The notes beneath the pieces are model-generated. The model was given only the letters and a program-made list of their open reading frames with translations, was not told where the DNA came from and searched no databases. The position numbers and the translations under genes are program-made. A stretch of 55,947 nucleotides of DNA, from positions 1-55,947 of the forward strand of contig SVBJ01000012.1 in the NCBI GenBank assembly GCA_015058955.1. Reading direction: 5' to 3'. Each line of letters opens with the position of its first letter. The stretch's first letter is position 1. Below are positions 2,223-51,786 of this stretch, one piece after another. This DNA comes from Erysipelotrichaceae bacterium (GTDB lineage: Bacteria; Bacillota_I; Bacilli_A; Erysipelotrichales; Erysipelotrichaceae).

Positions 2223-2933
2223 ATGAAATATGAAATTTTTGGCGGCGATTTTCCAGCTGTAACAATTTTCCTGGAAGATGGCGAAAGCATTTATACCCAG
2301 GCCGGTGGTTTAGCCTGGATGAGCGACCAGATCAGAATGGATACCAATGTAAAGGGCGGACTGCTGGCAGGCTTCAAGAGAATGCTGTCAGGCGATTCAC
2401 TGTTCATTGCTGACTATGTTGCCGAAGCTCCTAATCAGGAGATTACTCTGTCAGCCAGCCTTCCTGGAACCATTCTTCCAATGGTAATTGATGAAGATCA
2501 TCATTACATATGCCAGAAGGGTGCTTTCCTGGGCGCTACTCAGGGAACGACTGTAGACATGGCTGCTACCAACTCATTCTGGGCTGGTCTGTTCGGCGGT
2601 GAAGGTTTCTTCCTGCAGCATCTGACTGGTGAAGGCCTTGTCTTCGTTGAACTTGACGGTTCAATCAGAGAAATCGATCTTAAGCCTGGTCAGACCATCA
2701 AGGTCGACAGCGGCAACGTTGCCATGTTTGAAGACTGCGTTCAGTATGACATTGAATCAATCAAGGGATTCAAGAACGTTCTGTTCGGCGGTGAAGGTCT
2801 GTTCTTAACTACTCTGACCGGACCTGGTAAGGTATGGCTGCAGACCATGACTGCCAAGGACCTGGCCGGCAGACTTGTTCCATTCCTGCCTACTCCGTCA
2901 TCAACCACAACAACGATTCATACAGGAGACTAA
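2223..2933 (+). CDS. AIM24 / TIGR00266 family protein
   Basis: The 236-residue protein is rich in short beta strands and glycine-containing turns, with repeats such as GGEGFFLQ and GGEGLFLT typical of the AIM24 (TIGR00266) fold. That is a tryptophan-RNA-binding-attenuator-like beta sandwich of unknown cellular role; the mitochondrial homologue is an inner-membrane organiser. The reading frame extends further upstream, but the ATG at 2223 has the better site (GAGGTGAAG, 7-11 nt upstream) and starts with the conserved MKYEIFGGDFPAV. A TATAAT at 2198-2203 is a plausible -10 box. A terminator follows at 2943. It is transcribed alone. Confidence 0.85.
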   Translation: MKYEIFGGDFPAVTIFLEDGESIYTQAGGLAWMSDQIRMDTNVKGGLLAGFKRMLSGDSLFIADYVAEAPNQEITLSASLPGTILPMVIDEDHHYICQKGAFLGATQGTTVDMAATNSFWAGLFGGEGFFLQHLTGEGLVFVELDGSIREIDLKPGQTIKVDSGNVAMFEDCVQYDIESIKGFKNVLFGGEGLFLTTLTGPGKVWLQTMTAKDLAGRLVPFLPTPSSTTTTIHTGD

Positions 2934-2942
2934 AAAAAACTG

Positions 2943-2963
2943 AGGAGGTTCGCCTCCTTTTTC
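2943..2963 (+). terminator. Terminator of the AIM24 gene
   Basis: AGGAGG/CCTCCT with a stable TTCG tetraloop, then T residues. The flanking A-run and CTGA/TCAG extension could let it work in both directions. The next gene's -10 box begins only 11 nt after the stem. Confidence 0.9.
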
Positions 2964-2980
2964 AGTAGTATAATAAATTT

Positions 2981-3523
2981 ATGAAAAATGTTTTGAATAC
3001 GGAAAGGCTGAAACTGAGAAAACTGCAGGAAAGTGATCTCGAGGACATCTTTGAGTGGGCCAGTGATCCGGAAGTAACCAGATACGTTACCTGGAATCCG
3101 CATGAATCCATTGAGGTGACCAGGACCATTCTTGATCTCTGGTTAAGAGAATATGATGATCCAGACTGCTATCGCTATGGCATTGAGCTGAAAGAAACAG
3201 GCAAGCTAGTCGGGATGATCGACGTGGTAGGTTACCGGGAAGGGGTTCCGGAAACAGGATACATTCTGAACAGGAAATACTGGAACAGGGGATACATGAG
3301 TGAAGCACTGGGAGCATTCAGAGATCATCTGCTGGAAAACTTTGATGAACTATTCATCAGGGCAGCCTGCGACAATCACGCCAGCAATGCTGTTATCAGA
3401 AAGAACGGATTTGAGTTTATCGGAACCGAAACGACCATCATGAAGAAAAGCGGACAGCCGGCAATGATTAACCGCTACCGCTATCTGAAGCAGAAAGGAA
3501 AAGCCCATGAAGAAGGCAATTGA
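2981..3523 (+). CDS. GNAT family N-acetyltransferase (RimJ/RimL-like)
   Basis: The 180-residue protein starts with the NTERLKLRKLQESD segment typical of the Acetyltransf_3 branch of GNAT enzymes, carries the WNRGYMSEAL acetyl-CoA-binding segment (RimJ/RimL-type variant of Q/R-x-x-G-x-G/A), and ends with ASNAVIRKNGFEFIG. Members acetylate N-terminal amines of proteins or small molecules; the substrate is unknown. No Shine-Dalgarno sequence precedes the ATG. A TATAAT at 2969-2974 ends only 6 nt upstream of it, so the transcript may be nearly leaderless. The end overlaps the next gene by 17 nt, which indicates co-transcription. Confidence 0.88.
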   Translation: MKNVLNTERLKLRKLQESDLEDIFEWASDPEVTRYVTWNPHESIEVTRTILDLWLREYDDPDCYRYGIELKETGKLVGMIDVVGYREGVPETGYILNRKYWNRGYMSEALGAFRDHLLENFDELFIRAACDNHASNAVIRKNGFEFIGTETTIMKKSGQPAMINRYRYLKQKGKAHEEGN

Positions 3524-3821
3524 AGCAATCAGAAAGTTTAACGAAGAAAGGGACTGGGACCAGTTTCACAGTCCGGCCAATCTGGCCAAGTCCATTTCAA
3601 TAGAAGCCGGCGAACTGCTGGAGTGTTTCCAATGGGGCGGCAGTTATGATAAGGAAGCCGTCTGTGAGGAACTGGCTGATGTCGTCAATTACTGCCTGGT
3701 CATGGCTGATCAGCTTAACGTTGATCTGGAAGAGATCCTGTTACGGAAACTGGAAAAGAACATAGCCAAGTACCCGGTTGAAAAAGCCCGCGGACGCAAT
3801 ACAAAGTACGATAAGCTGTAG
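3507..3821 (+). CDS. MazG-like nucleotide pyrophosphohydrolase
   Basis: This 104-residue all-alpha protein has the two acidic helices of the MazG/dCTPase/RS21-C6 superfamily: E33-x2-E36-x2-E39 in one helix and E54-E55-x2-D58 in the next. These hold the Mg2+ ions that hydrolyse (d)NTPs to NMP and pyrophosphate. The short single-domain form usually acts as a house-cleaning enzyme for non-canonical nucleotides; the exact base preference is not visible. Its start lies inside the acetyltransferase gene with GAAAGGA upstream, so the two are translated from one message. Confidence 0.85.
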   Translation: MKKAIEAIRKFNEERDWDQFHSPANLAKSISIEAGELLECFQWGGSYDKEAVCEELADVVNYCLVMADQLNVDLEEILLRKLEKNIAKYPVEKARGRNTKYDKL

Positions 3822-3826
3822 GGAAT

Positions 3827-3855
3827 TTGCCATAAGGATAAAAGTCTGCTAAAAT
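3827..3855 (+). promoter_or_regulatory. Sigma-A promoter of a leaderless gene
   Basis: TTGCCA, a 17-nt spacer and TAAAAT. The -10 box ends 6 nt before the ATG at 3862, so transcription should start at or within 1-2 nt of the start codon. No ribosome-binding site is present. Confidence 0.7.
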
Positions 3856-3861
3856 CACGTT

Positions 3862-4371
3862 ATGAGTGAACTTTCGGAAAACAAGGTATATCAGAGCTTA
3901 AGAACAGTTTTAGCCGCCGTAGCCGGCATTTCTTTGGCAAATGTCTTTCTGATCAAGATGGAGATTGAAAGGAATCTGCTGTTTTCGGCATTTCTGCCGG
4001 CATTGGGAGCTAACCGCACCGTTTATTTTGCCCCTGAGTTTAATCAGAACCGGGCCATTATCGGCGGAGTAATGCTGATAGGAGCCTTATTTACCTGCTA
4101 TGTGCTTTCCAATAAGAGATGGGTCTGGATGATGATAGCCTTCCTGATCTATCTGATCGATACCTGGTTCATGATCTGGTTCATAGAGGTCGGTGGATAC
4201 AGCTACGCTGAATGGAGCCTGGACATAATTGCACATGTCATCATATTGGCCATACTGCTGCGGGCTGCCGTGATCGGCAAGAACCGGGCAGAGAAAAAGC
4301 CGGTGGAAGAAATGTCCCAGCCGGCTGAAGAGAAAACTGATAATAAGATTGATTACTATGTAGATGATTAA
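3862..4371 (+). CDS. Hypothetical four-helix membrane protein
   Basis: I do not recognise the family. The 169 residues show four hydrophobic segments (about 14-32, 68-86, 89-110 and 122-138) and a charged cytosolic-looking tail of about 30 residues rich in E, K and D. The segment after helix 1 (about 36-66) is only mildly hydrophobic. The start is fixed by a promoter whose -10 box ends 6 nt upstream and by the absence of any other in-frame start with a ribosome site. It is convergent with ribU and shares a bidirectional terminator with it. Confidence 0.75.
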   Translation: MSELSENKVYQSLRTVLAAVAGISLANVFLIKMEIERNLLFSAFLPALGANRTVYFAPEFNQNRAIIGGVMLIGALFTCYVLSNKRWVWMMIAFLIYLIDTWFMIWFIEVGGYSYAEWSLDIIAHVIILAILLRAAVIGKNRAEKKPVEEMSQPAEEKTDNKIDYYVDD

Positions 4372-4399
4372 GACGGCAGAAATGCTGTCTTATTTTTTT
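4369..4399. terminator. Bidirectional terminator
   Basis: A 10-bp stem (one G-U pair) with a GAAA loop and seven T on the plus strand. The stop codons of both convergent genes overlap or touch it. The minus-strand tail is less U-rich, so it is stronger in the plus direction. Confidence 0.85.
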
Positions 4400-4986
4400 A
4401 ATAACGGTGAAACTCTCTTGTATACCAGAGCGGTAATGATTCCCACCAGAATTCCCTTGACCAGATTGAAAAGGGTAACACAGACCAGAACCAGGGAAAG
4501 AGTACTGTTGATGAACGGGAAGATTTTGGTGCCTGCCGCAATGATGGCTTCCAGAGGGAAGTGAGCAATTGAGACATAGGCCGGGATCAGCAGGAAGTAG
4601 TTAAGCAGGTCACCGGCTATTACCATGGAAATGATGCCAACGACGATGCTGATGACGGCACCTTTTCTGGTTCTGTTTTTTTGATAAATGAAGCCGGCCG
4701 GTACGACCAGAGCACATCCCATTAAGAAGTTGGCAAATTCACCGATAAAGGCTGTGTTGGTTCCGTTGAAGACCAGATTCAGCAATACTTTCAGCGCTTC
4801 AATGGCAATGCCAGCCAGAGGTCCTAAGGCAAATGATCCTATCAGGACCGCTACTTCCGAGAAGTCCAGCTTGTAGAAAGACGGGGCAATTGAAGGCAAC
4901 GGGAAGGAAACAAGCATGATGACTACTGCTACGGCAGCCATGATGGCGATCTTGGCTAATGTTTTGATACTGTTTTCTGATGACAT
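4390..4986 (-). CDS. ribU: Riboflavin ECF transporter substrate-binding component RibU
   Basis: The 198-residue protein has six hydrophobic segments and the RibU N-terminal signature, including FPLPSIAPSFYKLDFSEV, which lines the riboflavin site, and an LGPLAGIAIEALKNLL-like helix. As an ECF S component it would bind riboflavin in the membrane and pair with the general EcfT/EcfA energising module encoded elsewhere. The assignment is reinforced by an FMN riboswitch directly upstream. An AAGGAGG site lies 7 nt before the ATG. Excess FMN should switch it off through the hairpin at 5008-5034. Confidence 0.95.
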   Translation of the reverse strand: MSSENSIKTLAKIAIMAAVAVVIMLVSFPLPSIAPSFYKLDFSEVAVLIGSFALGPLAGIAIEALKVLLNLVFNGTNTAFIGEFANFLMGCALVVPAGFIYQKNRTRKGAVISIVVGIISMVIAGDLLNYFLLIPAYVSIAHFPLEAIIAAGTKIFPFINSTLSLVLVCVTLFNLVKGILVGIITALVYKRVSPLLKK

Positions 4987-5007
4987 TTCATATCCTCCTT
5001 AACCTCG

Positions 5008-5034
5008 AAAAAAGAGGTTCATATCAAAACCTCC
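5008..5034 (-). terminator. FMN riboswitch expression-platform terminator
   Basis: On the minus strand GAGGTT and AACCTC form a 6-bp stem around an 8-nt loop and are followed by six U. This is an intrinsic terminator between the aptamer and ribU. The AACCTC arm can also pair with a second GAGGTT at 5001-5006, just before the ribosome site, so the same arm may choose between a termination hairpin and a hairpin next to the Shine-Dalgarno. Confidence 0.7.
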
Positions 5035-5054
5035 AGTTTTTCGTGAAAAGAAAA

Positions 5055-5160
5055 TTCTTCTCTCATCCAGACTTTACTGTCGCCCATGGAATCGCACCAT
5101 GTCAGCCTTAGGCTCGTGGGGTATTACCACCGGTAAGGAATTTCACCTGTCCCTGAAGAT
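5055..5160 (-). promoter_or_regulatory. FMN riboswitch (RFN element)
   Basis: Read on the minus strand, the conserved RFN blocks appear in order: AGGGACAGGTGAAATTCC, ACCGGTGGTAATACCC, CACGAGCC, GGTGCGATTCC, GGGCGACAGTAAAGTC and GGATGAGAGAAGAA. FMN binding is expected to reduce expression of the downstream riboflavin transporter. Confidence 0.97.
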
Positions 5161-5169
5161 TTCCTTATA

Positions 5170-5198
5170 ATTATAGTTTCGTTATGTCAGTGTGTAAA
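5170..5198 (-). promoter_or_regulatory. Promoter of the RFN-ribU transcript
   Basis: On the minus strand TTTACA, a 17-nt spacer and TATAAT. The predicted start falls immediately before the 5-prime arm of the aptamer. Confidence 0.75.
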
Positions 5199-5216
5199 GA
5201 TTACTGCTCAATCATT

Positions 5217-6542
5217 TCAGATTTTCAGCAGATTGATCAGAGCCTTGGTGTAGATCTCGGTCTGCAGTTGCAGTGACTTGAGAGTTACGAATTCATTGTC
5301 ATCATGAATGTGCCAGTTGTATTCGCCGGTGTCACAGCCAAAGGCCACGATGTTCGGCATGCTTCTGGCATAGGTGCCTCCGCCCATGGTAATAGGCTTC
5401 TGATCAGATCCCGTTACTTCATAATAGGCATCCAGCATGCCCTTGATCATCGGATGATCAAGAGGGAAGAACAGAGGGTCGGCGCCTGCAACATTGATAA
5501 CGTGTCCTTCACCGTTGGCAACCAGCTTTTCAGCAATTGGTCCGTTGGTCATGGTTACCGGGAATCTGATGTCGATTGATGCGCAGATGCAGTCATCCTT
5601 CTTTTCAATGACGCCCATGTTGAAGGTCAGTCTGCCATATTGGTCAGCCAGATCAATGCCGAGCTTTTCTCCATAGTATCCGGTACCGATCTTGTTGTGA
5701 TACAAGGTGACGAAGCTGTCATCGATGCCAGCCAGGTATAATGCTTCAAAGCCATGTGACATGGCATTGATGCCTTCTTCCGGGGTGGAAGCATGGGCAG
5801 CCGTACCGAAGACGGTGAGTACGTCATTTTCATATGTATAGCTTAAGCCATTGCTTTTCAGATATTCTGCCAGAACCTTTTCGTCAAAGCAATCCGGAAC
5901 CAGTCTGAAGATGATCTTGGCACACACTGCATTGCCGGCAGTTCCGCCTTTGACATCAAGGATCTTTTCTGATTTTCCGCAGAAGGTCCCGTGCAGCATG
6001 CCTTTTTCACCGAAGACAACAGGGAAGGCGCCGTCAGGTGTAAAGCCGCAGTCAACCGCTCCTTCCTTCTGAACGTAATATCTTACGCAGGCAGAACCGC
6101 TTTCTTCATTGCAGCCCATGATCAGACGGATCCTTTTGTTTATTACCGGCTGGATCTCAGCCAGGATCTTCATGGCATACAGTCCGCACAGAACACCGCC
6201 CTTGTCATCGGAAGTACCGCGGCCATAATACTTGCCGTCAATTTCAACCATTTTGAACGGATCGGTCTTCCAGGTATCGGAAACCGGCACGACGTCGAGA
6301 TGGCCGACGATGCCGATAACTTCATCGCCCTGGCCCATTTCAATGTATCCGACGTAATTGTCAACGTTAACGGCCCTGAAACCTTCTCTTCTCCCCATTT
6401 CCAAAGCAGCATTGAGACAGTCGATGTTTGCCTGCCCGAAAGGCTTGACATCGTCACTGTAGACGGAAGGGTAGGACACCAGTCTGGCCAGATCTTTCAG
6501 CAGAGCCGGTGAATATTCCTGTACTTTTTCTTTTATTGACAT
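5217..6542 (-). CDS. pepV: Dipeptidase PepV (M20 metallopeptidase)
   Basis: The 441-residue protein matches the PepV/Sapep branch of M20 peptidases, which cleave Xaa-His and many other dipeptides in the cytosol with two Zn2+ ions. Visible metal and catalytic residues are H81 and D83 in GHLDVVP, D113 in GRGTSDDKGG and E146/E147 in NEESGS; a late histidine segment (NWHIHDDNE) completes the site. The length is slightly short of the usual ~465. AAAGGAG precedes the ATG by 9-10 nt. It lies 17 nt after the small gene at 6560-6898, so both probably share a transcript. Confidence 0.93.
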   Translation of the reverse strand: MSIKEKVQEYSPALLKDLARLVSYPSVYSDDVKPFGQANIDCLNAALEMGRREGFRAVNVDNYVGYIEMGQGDEVIGIVGHLDVVPVSDTWKTDPFKMVEIDGKYYGRGTSDDKGGVLCGLYAMKILAEIQPVINKRIRLIMGCNEESGSACVRYYVQKEGAVDCGFTPDGAFPVVFGEKGMLHGTFCGKSEKILDVKGGTAGNAVCAKIIFRLVPDCFDEKVLAEYLKSNGLSYTYENDVLTVFGTAAHASTPEEGINAMSHGFEALYLAGIDDSFVTLYHNKIGTGYYGEKLGIDLADQYGRLTFNMGVIEKKDDCICASIDIRFPVTMTNGPIAEKLVANGEGHVINVAGADPLFFPLDHPMIKGMLDAYYEVTGSDQKPITMGGGTYARSMPNIVAFGCDTGEYNWHIHDDNEFVTLKSLQLQTEIYTKALINLLKI

Positions 6543-6559
6543 GATGAATTCTCCTTTAT

Positions 6560-6898
6560 TCAGTTAATGATTCCGGTATTGAGCTCAGAGTCATATTCAG
6601 TGTAATGACGGCTGATCAGTTCCTTGGAATCGCTGATCAGCTGATCGATGAGCTGACGGAATTCTTCTGAGTCTGAATCCATGTCCTTGAGCTCCATGCC
6701 GCGCTGTATCAGGGAAATGATCTCACGGGAAAGAGAGAGCTCTTCAAAGATCTCGGCGGTCAGATCGGAAAGCCAGTAGCTTTCTGCCTGCCGGTAGGAA
6801 ATAAGCTCTTCCTTCAGTGAAACAAAAGTTCCCAGAATGCTGGTCAGCAGCATTGTTTCGAAGTCATATCCGTTCTCAAAGGATTTAGGTATTACCAT
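6560..6898 (-). CDS. Hypothetical small helical protein
   Basis: I do not recognise this 112-residue, acidic, predominantly helical protein. It has no signal or membrane segment. It begins MVIPKSFENGYDF and contains paired acid/leucine helices that could dimerise. A GAGGTG ribosome site lies 6 nt upstream and a TATAAT on the minus strand lies at about 6921-6926. It is the first gene ahead of pepV, but nothing in it suggests a peptidase-related job. Confidence 0.65.
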   Translation of the reverse strand: MVIPKSFENGYDFETMLLTSILGTFVSLKEELISYRQAESYWLSDLTAEIFEELSLSREIISLIQRGMELKDMDSDSEEFRQLIDQLISDSKELISRHYTEYDSELNTGIIN

Positions 6899-6963
6899 AG
6901 ATTCACCTCATTTAAACTTTATTATACAATATGTGGTTTAAAGGTTGCTTAAGAATTGCATAC

Positions 6964-6992
6964 TTGATATAAATTTTTTATAACTGTATAAT
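6964..6992 (+). promoter_or_regulatory. Sigma-A promoter with very short or absent leader
   Basis: TTGATA, 17-nt spacer, TATAAT. The -10 box ends 5 nt before the ATG at 6998 and 23 nt before an alternative ATG at 7016. Confidence 0.75.
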
Positions 6993-6997
6993 CATTT

Positions 6998-7624
6998 ATG
7001 AAAGTTGAGGCGCTTATGAGATTTTTGGAAAAGGTGATAACTACCTTATTAACATTTGTCTTCCTTTATACTCTCATCATGATAGGTGTATATCATTTCA
7101 TCTATCCTTATCCTGTCGGAGCACTTGATGAGATGGAGAGACGGGACGGAGCTTTAACGTACAGACTCATTGATTCCAGGTATCTTGACAAGGATACGAT
7201 CATATATTTCACCAGAAGCAAAAACGGTGCAGGGGACAGAGCTCATGTCGGAACCTATGATTCCCAGCTGCCTACCCTGATTGCCAACTTCAAGTGTGAA
7301 TCTACCAGTTCGCAATATCTGCCGATGGACAGTTACGGAATCCTGAAGACCAATAACCGGGATAATTACTATATTCTCTATGGCGGAACCCGTGACGAGA
7401 ACACCGTTGCGGTAAAGATAGTGTTCTATGGTGAAGATGACAACAACACCTCGATCAGGATCCCGGTAGATGATTTCTTCTTCTACACCGTGGGAATCAA
7501 TCCGGAACTGCTGAATCAGGAAAGCCGTATCTACGGTCTTAACTATGAAGACGGCATAACCTTTGAATACGGCGGTGACGCGCTGATCGAACCAGGATAT
7601 ATCTCAAAGTACAAGGAAAGCTAA
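6998..7624 (+). CDS. Hypothetical membrane-anchored protein
   Basis: The family is not recognised. The 208-residue protein has one N-terminal membrane helix (about 14-34) followed by a soluble domain of mixed strands, with motifs such as YDSQLPTL and DDFFFYTVGINPELL. Type II orientation is likely, placing the domain outside. Start choice is open. The ATG at 6998 would be leaderless, whereas the in-frame ATG at 7016 has GAGG 5 nt upstream and would give MRFLEKVITTLL. It is followed by tRNA-Trp, which has its own promoter. Confidence 0.7.
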   Translation: MKVEALMRFLEKVITTLLTFVFLYTLIMIGVYHFIYPYPVGALDEMERRDGALTYRLIDSRYLDKDTIIYFTRSKNGAGDRAHVGTYDSQLPTLIANFKCESTSSQYLPMDSYGILKTNNRDNYYILYGGTRDENTVAVKIVFYGEDDNNTSIRIPVDDFFFYTVGINPELLNQESRIYGLNYEDGITFEYGGDALIEPGYISKYKES

Positions 7625-7629
7625 AAGTC

Positions 7630-7657
7630 TTGTTAAATCCGGAAAATATGTTAATAT
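7630..7657 (+). promoter_or_regulatory. Promoter of tRNA-Trp
   Basis: TTGTTA and TAATAT separated by 16 nt, 12 nt upstream of the mature tRNA 5-prime end. Confidence 0.5.
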
Positions 7658-7669
7658 ATTAAGTGCTGT

Positions 7670-7743
7670 AGGGGTGTAGTTTAGTGGCAAAACAACGGTC
7701 TCCAAAACCGTTGATGGGGGTTCGATTCCCTCCACCCCTGCCA
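7670..7743 (+). tRNA. tRNA-Trp (CCA anticodon)
   Basis: A complete 74-nt cloverleaf: acceptor stem AGGGGUG/CACCCCU, anticodon arm ACGGU-CUCCAAA-ACCGU with CCA at positions 34-36, T arm containing GGUUCGAUUCC, discriminator G and an encoded 3-prime CCA. It is the only tRNA in the window. Confidence 0.97.
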
Positions 7744-7769
7744 TTTGGATAATGGCTGGCGCTTTTTTT
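7740..7769 (+). terminator. Possible terminator of the tRNA gene
   Basis: GCCATT/AATGGC forms a 6-bp stem that begins at the tRNA discriminator/CCA and is followed, after 6 nt, by seven T. The overlap with the tRNA CCA end makes the hairpin less certain. Confidence 0.4.
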
Positions 7770-7783
7770 ATAGGGAAAGAAAT

Positions 7784-8356
7784 ATGAAAGTACTGGCAAT
7801 TGATTTTGAAACCGCCAACGGTTCCTTCTGCTCAGCCTGTTCCATCGGATACTGTGTGATGAACAATGGGGAGATAGTGGAAAAGAATGAAATACTGATC
7901 AGACCGCATCCCCGCTACGGCTATTTTTCACCTGACAATACCAGGATCCATGGGCTGAAGAAACAGGATTGTGCCGGTGCAGACAGCTGGCCGTATGTCT
8001 TCAATGAGATATATCATCTGTTTGAAGACAGCATTGTTGTGGCTCATAATGCGCCATTTGATCTGAAGGTGCTGAAAAGCATCAATGCTCTTTATGGAAT
8101 AGACATGGCGGACTTCCCGTATCTGGATACCGTCTATCTGTCCCGCAAGATGTTTCCTCAGCTGCCTAATCACCGCCTGAATACGGTCTGTGAGTATCTG
8201 GGATTTCAGTTCAATCATCATCAGGCCGGGCAGGATGCCTTTGGCTGCATGGCTATCATTGAAGCCGTCATGGAGATGCTTAATGAGTATGACATTGAAC
8301 AGATTGTGAAGCGTACCGGCAGCAGATTGAAAATGTTTTCTGAAATTAATATATAG
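7784..8356 (+). CDS. DnaQ-like 3-prime to 5-prime exonuclease
   Basis: The 190-residue single-domain protein has the DEDDh exonuclease motifs: DFET near the N terminus (Exo I), HNAPFD with its aspartate (Exo II) and HxxxxD in HHQAGQD (Exo III). It resembles stand-alone polymerase III epsilon-like nucleases that trim single-stranded DNA or RNA ends. No helicase or polymerase domain is attached. Reading could begin upstream inside the tRNA terminator, but the ATG at 7784 with GGGAAAG upstream gives the usual MKVLAIDFETAN start. Confidence 0.88.
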   Translation: MKVLAIDFETANGSFCSACSIGYCVMNNGEIVEKNEILIRPHPRYGYFSPDNTRIHGLKKQDCAGADSWPYVFNEIYHLFEDSIVVAHNAPFDLKVLKSINALYGIDMADFPYLDTVYLSRKMFPQLPNHRLNTVCEYLGFQFNHHQAGQDAFGCMAIIEAVMEMLNEYDIEQIVKRTGSRLKMFSEINI

Positions 8357-8439
8357 AATTCTGTAAAATAGAGTTATTTTGATTGTTTTGTTTGCTGAAA
8401 GAACTTATAATAACTTTTATAACTGCAGGGGGAATTGAA

Positions 8440-8823
8440 ATGGAATTTGAAAATAATGCTTATTTCTGGCAGAAACTGGATACACTGTATCTTTCCAGTG
8501 ATCTGGTTATCGACAGGCCTAAGGGAACATGCCACCCATTTTACTCTAACCTCGTTTATCCTGTTAACTATGGCTATCTGAAGGACCCTAAGGATGATGA
8601 ACACATCGACTGCTACAGGGGAAGCAAAAATGAAAACAGTGTTAATGCCATGGTCGTCTGTGCTGACATTCTGAATAAGGACATTGAAGTCAAGCTTCTG
8701 GTTGGCTGTACGGATCAGGAAGAAATGGATATTCTGGGATTCCTTAATCAGACGGATTTCCAGAAATCCGTAATTATAAGAAGAGGATCTGCTATCCCTG
8801 ACTGGGGAAATACCAGTAACTGA
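8440..8823 (+). CDS. Inorganic pyrophosphatase-like protein (divergent)
   Basis: The 127-residue protein keeps the class I pyrophosphatase scaffold (LVIDRPKGTCHPFY, then YPVNYGYL) and the D/K of NKDIEVKLLVG. It is shorter than the usual 170-180 residues and has DDEHID where the metal site normally reads DGDPLD, so one catalytic Asp is Glu. It may be a degenerate hydrolase, a different phosphoryl hydrolase or a binding protein. AGGGGGAA lies 5 nt before the ATG; the open frame continues upstream but without a ribosome site. A terminator follows directly. Confidence 0.7.
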   Translation: MEFENNAYFWQKLDTLYLSSDLVIDRPKGTCHPFYSNLVYPVNYGYLKDPKDDEHIDCYRGSKNENSVNAMVVCADILNKDIEVKLLVGCTDQEEMDILGFLNQTDFQKSVIIRRGSAIPDWGNTSN

Positions 8824-8846
8824 TGTCTCGCAAGAGACATTTTTTG
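8823..8846 (+). terminator. Terminator after the pyrophosphatase-like gene
   Basis: ATGTCTC/GAGACAT with a GCAA loop and six T. The stem begins at the last base of the stop codon. Confidence 0.9.
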
Positions 8847-8847
8847 T

Positions 8848-8856
8848 TGGTATGAT
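8848..8856 (+). promoter_or_regulatory. Extended -10 promoter close to the rlmCD start codon
   Basis: TGG-TATGAT, an extended -10 element, ends 6 nt before the ATG at 8863. No -35 box is evident and no ribosome site precedes the ATG, so the message may be leaderless. Confidence 0.45.
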
Positions 8857-48820: not shown

Positions 48821-48849
48821 AGCCAGTATCCTTATGAATACTGGCTTTA
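48821..48849. terminator. Bidirectional terminator between nagA and the beta-helix gene
   Basis: AGCCAGTAT/ATACTGGCT with an 8-nt loop; T residues follow on the plus strand, and CTTTTTAA follows on the minus strand. Confidence 0.88.
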
Positions 48850-48859
48850 ATTATGGCTT

Positions 48860-50329
48860 TTACCAGCCCGGACGTCCGCCTCCGGGATTGCCTCCCTGAT
48901 TGCCCCAGCCACCTGGCTGACCGCCCGGTCCCATTCCGCCACCACCAAACTGGTTGGTCAGCTGGGTTATCTGAGTTCCGTTTACGATGACTGTACCGCC
49001 ATTGAGCTGTCCCTGACCGTCATAGTCAAACGGTGACTGAGCAGAGATGACGATATAACCGCCATTGATGATCAGATTGCCGTTGGAATCAAGGGCATCG
49101 GTATCGCCCTGACCCATGTTTACGGTCAGTTCACCATCATTAATTGTAATGGTTGGAGTAATTCCGTTTACTTTCTGAGCGGCGTTTATGCCGTCGTCAG
49201 AAGCATTAACAGTGATGTCGCCGCCGTTAATAGTTACCACTGTAGCTTCCAGACCTTCCGCGGAATTGATTACGATTGTTCCGTCATTGATTTCCAGCGT
49301 ATGGTCAGCGTGGATTGCATCATCACCGGCCTTGATGGAGATTTCACCGCCGTTGATCACGATCACATTATCACTGTGCAGACCGTCTTCGGTAACGGTA
49401 AGAGTGATGACACCGCTGTCAATGATGATTGCCTGTGTTGACTGAATGCCCTTATCGCCAGCTTGAACGGTAATGGTTGAACTGTTTACATAGATGAAAC
49501 CTTTTGTATTGTCTTCGTCATTATCGGCCTTGATGCCATCTGTGCCTGCTTTGGCAGTAACTGTGGCATTTACCAGCTTGAGTGCATCGTTTACATTGAC
49601 GGCTGTCTTGACAGCTGTGACCTTGACGGTTGCCCCGGCAAGGGTCAGTTCATCCTTGCAGACGATACCGTGCTTGTAATTGCCGTTGACGATCAGAGTA
49701 CCGGTTCCGTTAATGGTCAGGTCATCCTTGCTGAAGATGGCACCGTCAACCTCTGATTCATCATAGCTTACACTGTAGGAAGAACCGTCAGAGATGGTAT
49801 TGACTGTATTGTCTGCCAGAGTAATGAAGACCTTGTCAGCCTGTCCGACCAGGATGGCTGCATTGTCACTGGCTGTAAGTGTCAGGTTATTGAGGATAAG
49901 CTGAACCTTAGAGTCACTGTCAGCCTCAATAAGCACGGTTCCGTTTCCGTCGCCTGAGAGTACATAAGTACCGGCAGAGGTGATTTTTACCGTGTTTTCC
50001 GTAACGGTAATGCCGTTTCCGGAAGTGTTGACGGCATTTCCGGAGAAAGTAACTGTTCCGGTAATCTCATCATAGCTGGCTGATAAGTCACGCTTGCTGA
50101 CTGATGTATCATACTCAACACCGTTGAAGGTGAAAGTATCTCTAAGACTTGAATTTTCGACAGCTGAGACAGTGGCATCGACGTTTTCAACCGGTGTAAC
50201 TGTTTCGACTGTTTCTGTCTGCTGCTCTGTTGGTGTTTCGTTATTGATTTCCGTATCGTTATTCTGCTGTTTTGCCCCACATCCTGTTAACAGGAGGGCG
50301 GCCAGCAGTATTGTCAGTGCTTTTTTCAT
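48860..50329 (-). CDS. Secreted Cthe_2159/DUF4353-type beta-helix lipoprotein
   Basis: The 489-residue protein has a lipoprotein signal (LLTGC, C17), an acidic Thr/Glu linker, and a repetitive region (about 85-455) of short strands with G-D-G/DDAIHAD/DDGIN turns typical of parallel beta-helix proteins of the carbohydrate-binding DUF4353 (Cthe_2159) family, where Asp-rich turns bind Ca2+. The last 30 residues are almost only Gly, Pro, Gln and Trp. It is attached to the outer membrane face and may bind polysaccharide. The start at 50329 follows the DUF4956 stop by 1 nt; GGAGG lies 12 nt upstream, and an in-frame GTG at 50338 is possible. Confidence 0.85.
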   Translation of the reverse strand: MKKALTILLAALLLTGCGAKQQNNDTEINNETPTEQQTETVETVTPVENVDATVSAVENSSLRDTFTFNGVEYDTSVSKRDLSASYDEITGTVTFSGNAVNTSGNGITVTENTVKITSAGTYVLSGDGNGTVLIEADSDSKVQLILNNLTLTASDNAAILVGQADKVFITLADNTVNTISDGSSYSVSYDESEVDGAIFSKDDLTINGTGTLIVNGNYKHGIVCKDELTLAGATVKVTAVKTAVNVNDALKLVNATVTAKAGTDGIKADNDEDNTKGFIYVNSSTITVQAGDKGIQSTQAIIIDSGVITLTVTEDGLHSDNVIVINGGEISIKAGDDAIHADHTLEINDGTIVINSAEGLEATVVTINGGDITVNASDDGINAAQKVNGITPTITINDGELTVNMGQGDTDALDSNGNLIINGGYIVISAQSPFDYDGQGQLNGGTVIVNGTQITQLTNQFGGGGMGPGGQPGGWGNQGGNPGGGRPGW

Positions 50330-50330
50330 A

Positions 50331-50999
50331 TTACTCACTCACCTCCGGGAATACTCCCAAACTGATTTCCAGATTGCTGTTTCTGATGCGTAATTCATTA
50401 ATGAAATTCTGGATCTCTTTTCTGTCCTTTAATACTATATCATAGGTAAGCTTGTACAGGCTTCCCATATTTGTAGTTCTTACCGTCAGCAGTTCGCTGC
50501 TTACGGTATATCTGTCCATCAGATCGCTGAATTCTTCAGTGTAATTCATGCCTTCAGGGCAGGTGATCTTTAACTCCTGATGTCTCTGTCCTAACTGTCC
50601 TTCCAGTTTGTGGAATACAGCCATGATGACACATACCAGTAAAGTAAACAGGGTGGCAAAGCCAATGTATCCGATGGAAGTTGCCAGACCGATGGTTACT
50701 GCCACAAAGATCAGCAGGATGTCTTCGGCCTTGTACTGCATGCTTCTGAATCTTACCAGTCCGAAGGCTCCGGCTACCGCAATACCGGTACCGACATTGC
50801 CATTGACCATCATGATGACTGTCTGAGCCACTACCGGCATCAGGATCAGGGTCATCTGATAACTTGGATTGCTCTTGTTAAGACGTCCCTGTAACAGTGC
50901 CAGCAGGGTTCCTAAAACGACTGATGCAGCTGTACAGATGAGGAATACCTCAAGTGTGATTGTTGATGAATATATTGATGTGAATAACTGTTCAAACAT
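50331..50999 (-). CDS. DUF4956 family membrane protein
   Basis: The 222-residue protein has about four membrane helices (about 15-35, 48-63, 68-85, 93-130) with the family motif GAFGLVRFRSMQYKAEDI between them, then a soluble C-terminal domain of about 90 residues with alternating strands (ACT-like in appearance). DUF4956 genes are usually found with VTC polyphosphate polymerases; function unknown. AAAGGGG lies 7 nt before the ATG. Its first 88 nt overlap the end of the VTC gene in another frame. Confidence 0.85.
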   Translation of the reverse strand: MFEQLFTSIYSSTITLEVFLICTAASVVLGTLLALLQGRLNKSNPSYQMTLILMPVVAQTVIMMVNGNVGTGIAVAGAFGLVRFRSMQYKAEDILLIFVAVTIGLATSIGYIGFATLFTLLVCVIMAVFHKLEGQLGQRHQELKITCPEGMNYTEEFSDLMDRYTVSSELLTVRTTNMGSLYKLTYDIVLKDRKEIQNFINELRIRNSNLEISLGVFPEVSE

Positions 51000-51697
51000 G
51001 TTTTTACCCCTTTCATAATCTTTTTCGTATAAATCTGACCGTATTTGGAGAAGTTCCCCGGATGGATGCCCAGCTCATTGAGCCGTCTAGCCAGCCAGAG
51101 TTCCATGGAATTAAGGCATTTGATTTCCATGATGATGGTATCATCTTCGGTAAGCTTTTCCTCAGGTTCATCATTTTTCAGTAACAGGTTCTTCAGTGAA
51201 TATCTGATGTCATAGTCAAATGTGATTCTTACAGAAGGATCCCGTGTGCTTACGAAGCAGTCTCTCTGATAGCTGATCAGCACTCTTGGCTTTAGATCCT
51301 CATTTTTCGCAAACAGATAATCTATTTCCTTCATTATCTGACTGTTGCATTCATTGTGCTGAAACAGCAGATAGTTAATGGCATCACGGTAACTGAGGCC
51401 CTGTCTTCTTTTGTAGGTGACTCCCAGATACTTTTTCTTCAGTTCCAGGAATACTTCAGAGTTGTCGTCACGTAATCCATAGCTTCTTAATCTGAGCTTT
51501 TCGCGGTATCCGTTGCCGTCAAGCGAACCTCTGACCAGCTGATAGTCATCAGTGTCAAAGTAGATGCTTGAAATATTGCTGTGTGGAAACAGATCAGGCT
51601 GAATTCTGTCCTGGATCCTGTCCATCAGATTTTCATACTGCTGTCTTGTCAGAATGTACTTGGACTCAACTCTTTCAAAGATTGACTGATAATCCAT
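50912..51697 (-). CDS. VTC-domain polyphosphate polymerase-like protein
   Basis: The 261-residue protein has the VTC tunnel-fold motifs: ERVESKYIL at the N terminus, GYREKLRLRSYG, FLELKKKYLGVTYKRRQ, ISYQRDCF, VRITFDYDIR and IIMEIKCLNSME, which place basic residues and a metal-binding Glu inside the tunnel. The yeast homologue Vtc4 polymerises phosphate from ATP. Here there is no SPX domain. AAAGGAGG lies 8 nt upstream. The last 30 codons read into the DUF4956 gene, so the C-terminal LNSYSHQYIHQQS tail is not family sequence. Confidence 0.87.
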   Translation of the reverse strand: MDYQSIFERVESKYILTRQQYENLMDRIQDRIQPDLFPHSNISSIYFDTDDYQLVRGSLDGNGYREKLRLRSYGLRDDNSEVFLELKKKYLGVTYKRRQGLSYRDAINYLLFQHNECNSQIMKEIDYLFAKNEDLKPRVLISYQRDCFVSTRDPSVRITFDYDIRYSLKNLLLKNDEPEEKLTEDDTIIMEIKCLNSMELWLARRLNELGIHPGNFSKYGQIYTKKIMKGVKTCLNSYSHQYIHQQSHLRYSSSVQLHQSF

Positions 51698-51722
51698 AAC
51701 GGCTACCTCCTTTACGACTTCA

Positions 51723-51728
51723 ATTATA
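51723..51728 (-). promoter_or_regulatory. -10 box of the VTC operon
   Basis: TATAAT on the minus strand, 26 nt before the start codon. The expected -35 position (51746-51751, ATTCAA) is poor, which fits an activator-dependent promoter. Confidence 0.6.
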
Positions 51729-51748
51729 GGAAGCGAAAATAGAGATTG

Positions 51749-51786
51749 AATGAACCGGATGTGAAGAAAAATAAATTCTGTGTGAA
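51749..51786 (-). promoter_or_regulatory. Pho-box-like direct repeats upstream of the VTC operon
   Basis: On the minus strand TTCACA, TTTATT, TTCACA and TTCATT recur at 11-, 10- and 11-nt intervals, ending at the -35 position. PhoP of Bacillus binds four TTAACA-like repeats at about 11-bp spacing just upstream of or over the -35. The link to phosphate control is an inference. Confidence 0.4.

What the first reader, a model, noticed from the sequence alone, without database searches (positions are those of the whole stretch)
48860..51786. VTC polymerase - DUF4956 - Cthe_2159 beta-helix lipoprotein operon with Pho-box-like repeats
Seen: three minus-strand genes with overlap or 1-nt spacing; the enzyme retains the VTC tunnel motifs, the second is a four-helix DUF4956 protein with GAFGLVRFRS, and the third is an anchored Asp-rich beta helix with a Gly-rich tail. 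Upstream, TTCACA/TTTATT/TTCACA/TTCATT repeat every 10-11 nt and end at a weak -35. Inference: phosphate-starvation (PhoP-like) activation of a membrane machine that makes polyphosphate and links it to a surface polymer-binding protein. No such system has an established function that I know of.
Basis: partly seen in the sequence, partly recalled or inferred. Interest (0 to 1): 0.8.

Follow-up and report, generated by a model that had tools for sequence, protein, structure and literature searches.

The report
Envelope-stress polyphosphate-synthase operon with exchangeable partner
A gut bacterium and many relatives carry a three-gene operon that pairs a yeast-like polyphosphate-making enzyme with a membrane protein and a surface lipoprotein, and its control sequences match those of a protein-quality-control (stress) regulon rather than the phosphate-starvation regulon, which gives a testable role to a widespread module of unknown function.

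Summary
Window 48860-51697 (minus strand) encodes a VTC-type polyphosphate polymerase, a DUF4956 membrane protein and a Cthe_2159 beta-helix lipoprotein, with an 11-nt-period TTCA repeat array upstream and a terminator downstream.

In 148 genomes of the order, 90 of 96 VTC hits have an adjacent DUF4956. The third gene is Cthe_2159 (39) or CotH (46), never both. VTC and DUF4956 trees both split by partner, with one apparent partner swap. All VTC catalytic landmarks are invariant, and the best structural match is yeast Vtc4. DUF4956 is a distant MgtC/SapB-like protein with an ACT-like domain.

The phosphate-starvation reading is not supported. TTCA repeats at exactly 11 nt precede 23/36 Cthe-type operons, 21/28 htrA genes and 12/20 close orthologues of one PhoB-class response regulator, but 1/23 pstS and 0/20 CotH-type operons. 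pstS promoters carry TT(A/T)ACA instead (16/23; 0 in the other groups). The operon therefore looks like a member of an htrA/two-component (envelope or secretion stress) regulon.

Best mechanism, partly inferred: ATP-driven phosphate-polymer synthesis at the membrane, handled outside by the lipoprotein. Polymer identity and export are untested. The CotH version is known from Pel loci; the Cthe_2159 version was not found in the literature searched.

The parts
50912..51697 (-). VTC-type (TTM-fold) polyphosphate polymerase, cytosolic, no SPX and no membrane domain; R9 E11 K13, K67 R69 R71, E85 K87 K89, K96, R145, R157, E191 K193, S217 K218 invariant
   Evidence: PF09359 E 2.5e-41; invariants; alignment to Vtc4 with R69/R71 at the R264/R266 pair mutated in 7ytj; fold best match Vtc4 3g3r
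50331..50999 (-). DUF4956 membrane protein: four long TM helices, Gly-rich short helix ending in invariant R83-F-R85, C-terminal ACT/ferredoxin-like domain; distant MgtC/SapB-like
   Evidence: PF16316 E 1.2e-13; model pLDDT 85; charges; MgtC matches below cut-off, reversed controls negative, 2lqj Z 8.7
48860..50329 (-). Cthe_2159-family beta-helix lipoprotein (lipobox LTGC, acidic ladder, Gly-rich C-terminus)
   Evidence: PF14262 E 9.1e-86; 4peu/4phb E 2.6e-29; alignment
51749..51786 (-). Direct-repeat array TTCACA/TTTATT/TTCACA/TTCATT, about 11-nt period, putative OmpR-family response-regulator site shared with htrA and RR promoters
   Evidence: sequence; conservation and specificity
51745..51750 (-). 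weak -35-like TTCAAT, 16 nt before the -10, overlapping the last repeat
   Evidence: read; inference
51723..51728 (-). -10-like TATAAT
   Evidence: read; inference
48821..48846 (-). intrinsic terminator, 11-bp stem, T-run

Best explanation
The operon encodes one version of a two-gene core (VTC-type polymerase + DUF4956) that works with an exchangeable extracytoplasmic third protein. Most likely mechanism: the cytosolic TTM enzyme builds a phosphate polymer (polyphosphate) from ATP at the inner face of the membrane. The MgtC-like DUF4956 protein docks or regulates the enzyme, and may pass the chain outward past its invariant R83/R85. The anchored Cthe_2159 beta-helix, rich in conserved acidic positions, holds or organises the polymer at the cell surface, perhaps through divalent cations. 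Expression is switched by an OmpR-family response regulator that also controls htrA and its own gene, that is, an envelope or protein-secretion stress response, not the Pho regulon. Shown by computation: module integrity, partner exclusivity, catalytic-residue conservation, fold match to Vtc4, and promoter sharing with htrA and RR genes. Inferred: product, export, surface retention, and the identity of the regulator.
For: Co-localisation: 90 of 96 VTC hits have same-strand DUF4956; 39 Cthe_2159, 46 CotH, 0 both, against about 0.1-0.2 chance co-localisations of each kind. Trees of VTC and DUF4956 both split by partner. 60 of 80 named DUF4956 loci, nearly all Bacillota outside the order, have Cthe_2159 on the same strand downstream and none has CotH by own HMM. 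VTC catalytic residues invariant in 27 and 62 sequences. Foldseek best hits are Vtc4 polymerase structures (E 4.6e-14), ahead of other TTM enzymes. Own genome lacks Ppk1. Promoters: TTCA repeats at exactly 11 nt in VTC-Cthe 23/36, HtrA 21/28, RR 12/20 (close orthologues), PstS 1/23, CotH-type 0/20; TTWACA repeats in PstS 16/23 and 0 in the others. Own-genome htrA promoter has four repeats at exactly 11 nt.
Against: No polymerase assay exists here. TTM-fold enzymes do several other chemistries. No fold match of the DUF4956 membrane part to the VTC membrane domain was found (inconclusive). MgtC proteins are better known as regulators than as channels (own knowledge; Salmonella work cited in PMC12345266), so export is a guess. 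In Streptococcus intermedius, deletion of the polymerase gene of the CotH version gave no reported change in Pel or aggregation, while the DUF4956 and CotH deletions did (PMC12345266). The response regulator belongs to the PhoB/PhoP class and in one relative (G091) lies behind pstSCAB-phoU, so a phosphate link is not excluded.
Confidence: 0.5

Rival explanations
1. One reading: PhoP-controlled phosphate-starvation operon that makes polyphosphate.
For: 11-nt direct repeats are the Pho-box type of architecture; the RR best matches PhoB (TIGR02154) and its kinase PnpS/WalK/PhoR, all below cut-off; G091 orthologue lies in the pst operon.
Against: pstS promoters of the same genomes use TTWACA, not TTCANA (16/23 against 0); htrA and RR share the operon's motif; in G084 the pst operon carries a different RR while the TTCA-linked orthologue lies elsewhere; no pst operon seen in the own genome.
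Confidence: 0.1
2. Accessory or regulatory module for an exopolysaccharide: the VTC/DUF4956 pair tunes or modifies a surface polysaccharide and Cthe_2159 is its carbohydrate-binding anchor; polyphosphate is only a local signal or phosphate donor.
For: CotH-PPP-DUF4956 is an accessory group of Gram-positive Pel clusters (PMC7112168); DUF4956 and CotH deletions alter Pel amount and aggregation (PMC12345266); Cthe_2159 is described as binding cellulose and polygalacturonate (PMC6712302); CotH-type operons here follow sigma/RsgI-like anti-sigma genes.
Against: No polysaccharide synthase in or next to the window operon or in the CotH-type neighbourhoods read here.
Confidence: 0.28
3. The VTC-like protein has left polyphosphate synthesis and hydrolyses triphosphates or makes a signal nucleotide, with the MgtC-like protein as the effector in the membrane.
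For: TTM fold is shared with tripolyphosphatases, thiamine triphosphatase and class IV adenylyl cyclases.
Against: Vtc4 structures rank clearly first, and the Vtc4 R264/R266, E426/K428 and K458 equivalents are invariant.
Confidence: 0.12

Closest known systems
CotH - polyphosphate polymerase - DUF4956 accessory group of Gram-positive Pel clusters (SIR_1592-1594 of Streptococcus intermedius)
   Same: Same VTC + DUF4956 core; secreted third protein; DUF4956 described there as an MgtC-like TM domain plus ACT domain (PMC7112168, PMC12345266).
   Different: Third protein is Cthe_2159, not CotH; VTC and DUF4956 form their own deep clades; no Pel genes nearby; different promoter control. That paper reports not finding the CotH synteny outside Pel, whereas it is found outside Pel here.
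Yeast VTC complex (Vtc1/3/4)
   Same: TTM-fold polymerase with conserved catalytic residues next to a dedicated membrane protein.
   Different: No SPX domain; enzyme and membrane part are separate proteins; membrane part is MgtC-like rather than shown to be VTC-like; third partner is an extracytoplasmic lipoprotein.
CssRS (Bacillus subtilis) and CiaRH (Streptococcus) htrA-controlling two-component regulons
   Same: Two-component system controls htrA (both) and is autoregulated (CssRS) (PMC12826053); here htrA, RR gene and operon share one repeat motif.
   Different: RR sequence is closest to PhoB-class models below cut-off; no polyphosphate-type operon known to me in those regulons.
Cthe_2159 of Clostridium thermocellum (4peu, 4phb)
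   Same: Same beta-helix family, E 2.6e-29.
   Different: Here a lipoprotein in a VTC/DUF4956 operon with extra C-terminal repeats and Gly-rich tail.

Membership tests
VTC polyphosphate polymerase domain (PF09359) | profile match above curated cut-off | tested here: met
   142 bits against cut-off 23
VTC polyphosphate polymerase domain (PF09359) | Vtc4 catalytic landmarks (R264/R266, E426/K428, K458 equivalents) | tested here: met
   R69/R71, E191/K193, K218 invariant; alignment to Vtc4 incl. the mutant chain of 7ytj. The C-terminal part of that alignment scores weakly on its own.
VTC polyphosphate polymerase domain (PF09359) | synthesises polyphosphate from ATP | not testable with these tools
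   no assay
Eukaryotic VTC complex | SPX domain and TM helices on the polymerase chain | tested here: not met
   261-aa protein with only the TTM domain
MgtC/SapB family (PF02308) | profile match above curated cut-off | tested here: not met
   best 26.4 bits against 31.4; window protein 11.2 bits
MgtC/SapB family (PF02308) | TM bundle followed by C-terminal ACT-like domain, matched in register | tested here: met
   NF007431 in 8 of 27, best 5.9e-8, in-register stretches; 2lqj Z 8.7, 3.1 A over 87 residues, many other ferredoxin-like folds score alike; own DUF4956 HMM hits a genuine MgtC at 2.6e-6; 0 of 10 reversed controls
Cthe_2159 family (PF14262) | profile match above curated cut-off and solved homologue | tested here: met
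Cthe_2159 family (PF14262) | binds cellulose / polygalacturonate | not testable with these tools
   literature only
Pho regulon (PhoP/PhoB box) | same repeat unit as pstS promoters of these genomes | tested here: not met
   TTWACA at 11 nt in 16/23 pstS promoters and 0/36 Cthe-type promoters; TTCA at 11 nt in 1/23 and 23/36
Pho regulon (PhoP/PhoB box) | induction by low phosphate | not testable with these tools
   no expression data
htrA/two-component (CssRS/CiaRH-like) regulon | operon, htrA and regulator gene share one response-regulator-type repeat | tested here: met
htrA/two-component (CssRS/CiaRH-like) regulon | regulator orthologous to CssR or CiaR | tested here: inconclusive
   NCBIfam best models PhoB/YycF/MtrA, all below cut-off; no CssR or CiaR model among the 25 shown
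Gram-positive Pel accessory group | CotH and pel genes in the locus | tested here: not met
   neither is seen in the ORFs read around the window operon; the window VTC locus has no CotH match nearby

The most novel reading that the evidence does not exclude
A bacterial, envelope-stress-induced machine that makes a phosphate polymer at the membrane and delivers it to the cell surface, built from a Vtc4-like polymerase and an MgtC-like membrane protein, with interchangeable outside clients (a Cthe_2159 beta-helix or a CotH kinase that could use the exported polymer as phosphate donor), each client type wired to a different trans-envelope sensor (htrA two-component system or SigI/RsgI-like sigma/anti-sigma pair).
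Probability: 0.25. Interest if true: 0.85.

Novelty: new variant of a known kind. Interest (0 to 1): 0.6.

Why it matters
VTC-type polymerases occur in many bacteria that have no proven VTC function. Tying them to a fixed membrane partner, to mutually exclusive surface partners and to an envelope-stress regulon makes the function of three 'unknown' families (bacterial VTC, DUF4956, Cthe_2159 lipoproteins) directly testable. It corrects a plausible phosphate-starvation reading, and it shows that the CotH-VTC-DUF4956 synteny is not confined to Pel loci.

Tried and rejected
Phosphate-starvation control: rejected as the best reading after comparing pstS, htrA, RR, CotH-type and Cthe-type promoters. 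DUF4956 as a homologue of the VTC membrane domain: no sequence match in the PDB and no VTC row in the fold lists; this is inconclusive, as the membrane part was barely tested by those searches. VTC-DUF4956 fusion proteins: none seen in the open-frame lengths. TTCA arrays in Clostridia: only 7 of 60 Cthe-type promoters, so the regulon wiring is a feature of this order, not of the module. Some pattern hits lie upstream of unrelated genes and are probably chance. The Ppk1 link is weak: 13 of 39 Cthe-type genomes have Ppk1 against 61 of 109 others, p 0.024, not corrected for relatedness.
Full report
WHAT IS THERE. The window lies in an Erysipelotrichaceae genome held as 1.78 Mb in 37 contigs. On the minus strand lie VTC (50912-51697), DUF4956 (50331-50999; 88-nt overlap) and a Cthe_2159 lipoprotein (48860-50329; 1-nt gap). 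An 11-bp-stem terminator at 48846-48821 ends the operon.

IS THE MODULE REAL. I searched the same 148 genomes of the order for VTC, Cthe_2159, DUF4956 and CotH and joined the places. Of 96 VTC hits, 90 have a same-strand DUF4956 next to them. Of these, 39 have Cthe_2159 downstream, 46 have CotH (30 downstream, 16 upstream), 5 have neither and none has both. Random placement would give about 0.1 (VTC-Cthe) to 0.2 (VTC-DUF4956, VTC-CotH) co-localisations, and independence of the two partners would give about 20 loci with both. Only 1 of 91 DUF4956 genes lacks a VTC nearby. Eight genomes, including the window's own, carry both types. The own second pair lies behind a CotH gene on contig C27. Trees of VTC (careful) and DUF4956 (quick) each show two deep clades. 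One contains only Cthe-type rows (36). The other holds all CotH-type rows plus three Cthe-type rows nested among them, which points to one swap of the third gene. A named scan gave 80 DUF4956 loci, nearly all from other Bacillota (Clostridia, Lachnospiraceae, Oscillospiraceae and others); 60 have Cthe_2159 on the same strand downstream and none has CotH by my own profile. Several of the rest are cut by contig ends.

THE ENZYME. All tunnel residues are invariant across both clades and in 62 further sequences. The profile aligns with yeast Vtc4. In the 7ytj chain, whose sequence carries the arginine changes that PMC9911596 names as the R264A/R266A/E426N mutant, the two mutated arginines fall on R69/R71 of the window protein. 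The C-terminal E426/K428 and K458 equivalents (E191/K193, K218) rest on a low-scoring stretch of the alignment but are strictly conserved. The predicted model (pLDDT 87) finds Vtc4 structures first (3g3r, E 4.6e-14), ahead of all other TTM proteins. The own genome has no Ppk1 match, so this enzyme and its paralogue are the only polyphosphate-polymerase candidates I found; Ppk2 was not searched.

THE MEMBRANE PROTEIN. The model (pLDDT 85) shows four long helices, a short Gly-rich helix ending in R83-F-R85, and a C-terminal alpha/beta domain. R83, R85, an acidic residue at 93 and a basic one at 174 are kept in both clades. Several lines point to a distant relation to MgtC/SapB: sub-threshold Pfam hits in 13 of 27 and 32 of 69 members, NCBIfam hits down to 5.9e-8, none in ten reversed sequences, a DUF4956 profile that hits a genuine MgtC protein at 2.6e-6 among 130 ORFs, and a C-terminal domain that superposes on mycobacterial MgtC (2lqj, Z 8.7), though many ACT/ferredoxin folds do as well. 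PMC12345266 had already described the streptococcal homologue as MgtC TM plus ACT. Membership is not claimed because the curated cut-off is not met.

THE LIPOPROTEIN. Most homologues show a cysteine at a lipobox-like place at the end of the signal peptide (my simple pattern missed several such as LCGC); two (L042, L061) have only an N-terminal hydrophobic segment. Invariant positions are mainly Gly, Asp, Glu and Asn in the helix turns, as expected of a cation-binding beta helix (inference). Cthe_2159 itself is described as binding cellulose and polygalacturonic acid (PMC6712302).

REGULATION. In the window the repeat array alone is weak (p 0.03). Over 36 Cthe-type loci a TTCANA triple at 11 nt is far above shuffles (Fisher 3e-14 and 7e-14), while the reversed sequences, the CotH-type loci and the Clostridia loci are not. 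A pattern scan of 35 genomes and the genes behind the hits pointed to htrA, response-regulator/kinase pairs and further Cthe_2159 genes. I then collected promoters without regard to motif: pstS, orthologues of the own response regulator and htrA. TTCA...TTCA at exactly 11 nt occurs in 23/36 VTC-Cthe, 21/28 htrA, 12/30 RR, 1/23 pstS and 0/20 CotH-type promoters; shuffled means are 0.7 or less. Among RR genes the signal is confined to close orthologues (12/20) and absent from the paralogue (0/10). TTWACA repeats at 11 nt occur in 16/23 pstS promoters and in none of the others. A search that left the third base free gave C in 36/44 repeats for VTC-Cthe, 23/30 for htrA, and A/T in 31/35 for pstS. 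The own htrA promoter reads TTCAGT/TTCAAT/TTCATT/TTCACA at exact 11-nt spacing. These promoter sets come from related genomes, so the counts are not independent events, but the contrast between sets from the same genomes is not explained by relatedness. htrA control by two-component systems (CssRS, CiaRH) is established elsewhere (PMC12826053).

CAVEATS ON REGULATION. Which regulator binds is inferred from autoregulation-like sites. Its class is PhoB-like, and in G091 the orthologue sits behind pstSCAB-phoU. In G084, by contrast, the pst operon has its own different regulator. The window's own array has one 10-nt step and one TTTATT unit, so it is a weaker example than many of its relatives.

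HOW IT PROBABLY WORKS. ATP-driven phosphate-polymer synthesis at the membrane (sequence and fold evidence), coupled to an MgtC-like partner (co-localisation; interaction inferred), with a surface beta-helix as client (lipobox; binding inferred), switched on with htrA under envelope or secretion stress (promoter evidence; condition inferred). The CotH version, with DUF4956 and CotH mutants altering Pel and aggregation while the polymerase mutant showed no reported effect (PMC12345266), warns that the polymerase may act under conditions not yet tested.

NOVELTY. The CotH version is known from Pel loci (PMC7112168, PMC12345266). The literature searches returned no description of the Cthe_2159 version, of the mutual exclusivity or of the htrA-type regulon; the library covers open-licence papers only.

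Noticed in passing
L305-L310 (CotH-type loci) and L003 6811-13233: Many CotH-type VTC-DUF4956 operons lie behind a sigma factor and RsgI-like (PF23750) anti-sigma genes, and none of the neighbourhoods read holds recognisable Pel genes; this contradicts the published remark that the three-gene synteny is not found outside Pel loci.
   Followed up: partly
L258 (G091) 2682-8849: The orthologue of the TTCA-linked response regulator and its kinase lie directly behind pstSCAB-phoU, so the regulator may have been recruited to phosphate control in that lineage.
   Followed up: no
G119:C59, G134:C5, G143:C15: htrA lies within about 2-5 kb of the Cthe-type triad, divergently transcribed, in three genomes of one genus (places).
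   Followed up: no
L176 (G107:C12): TTCANA repeats precede what reads as the start of a VTC-like gene broken into short frames, apparently a decayed copy.
   Followed up: no
L178 (G116:C21): A stand-alone secreted Cthe_2159-like protein with a Gly/Pro-rich stretch has three perfect TTCANA repeats upstream, so the regulon may include further proteins of this family.
   Followed up: no
VTC_Cthe promoter set: TTCA pairs are also over-represented at spacings 6 and 17 in these promoters (9 and 8 of 36), suggesting extra half-sites.
   Followed up: no
L308 12617-13309: A genuine MgtC/SapB gene lies directly next to a CotH-VTC-DUF4956 operon.
   Followed up: no
PMC6712302: Cthe_2159 and CotH are both listed among the domains unique to anaerobic gut fungi (there, Cthe_2159 is attributed to transfer from bacteria); the two alternative third partners here therefore also turn up together in those fungi.
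   Followed up: no
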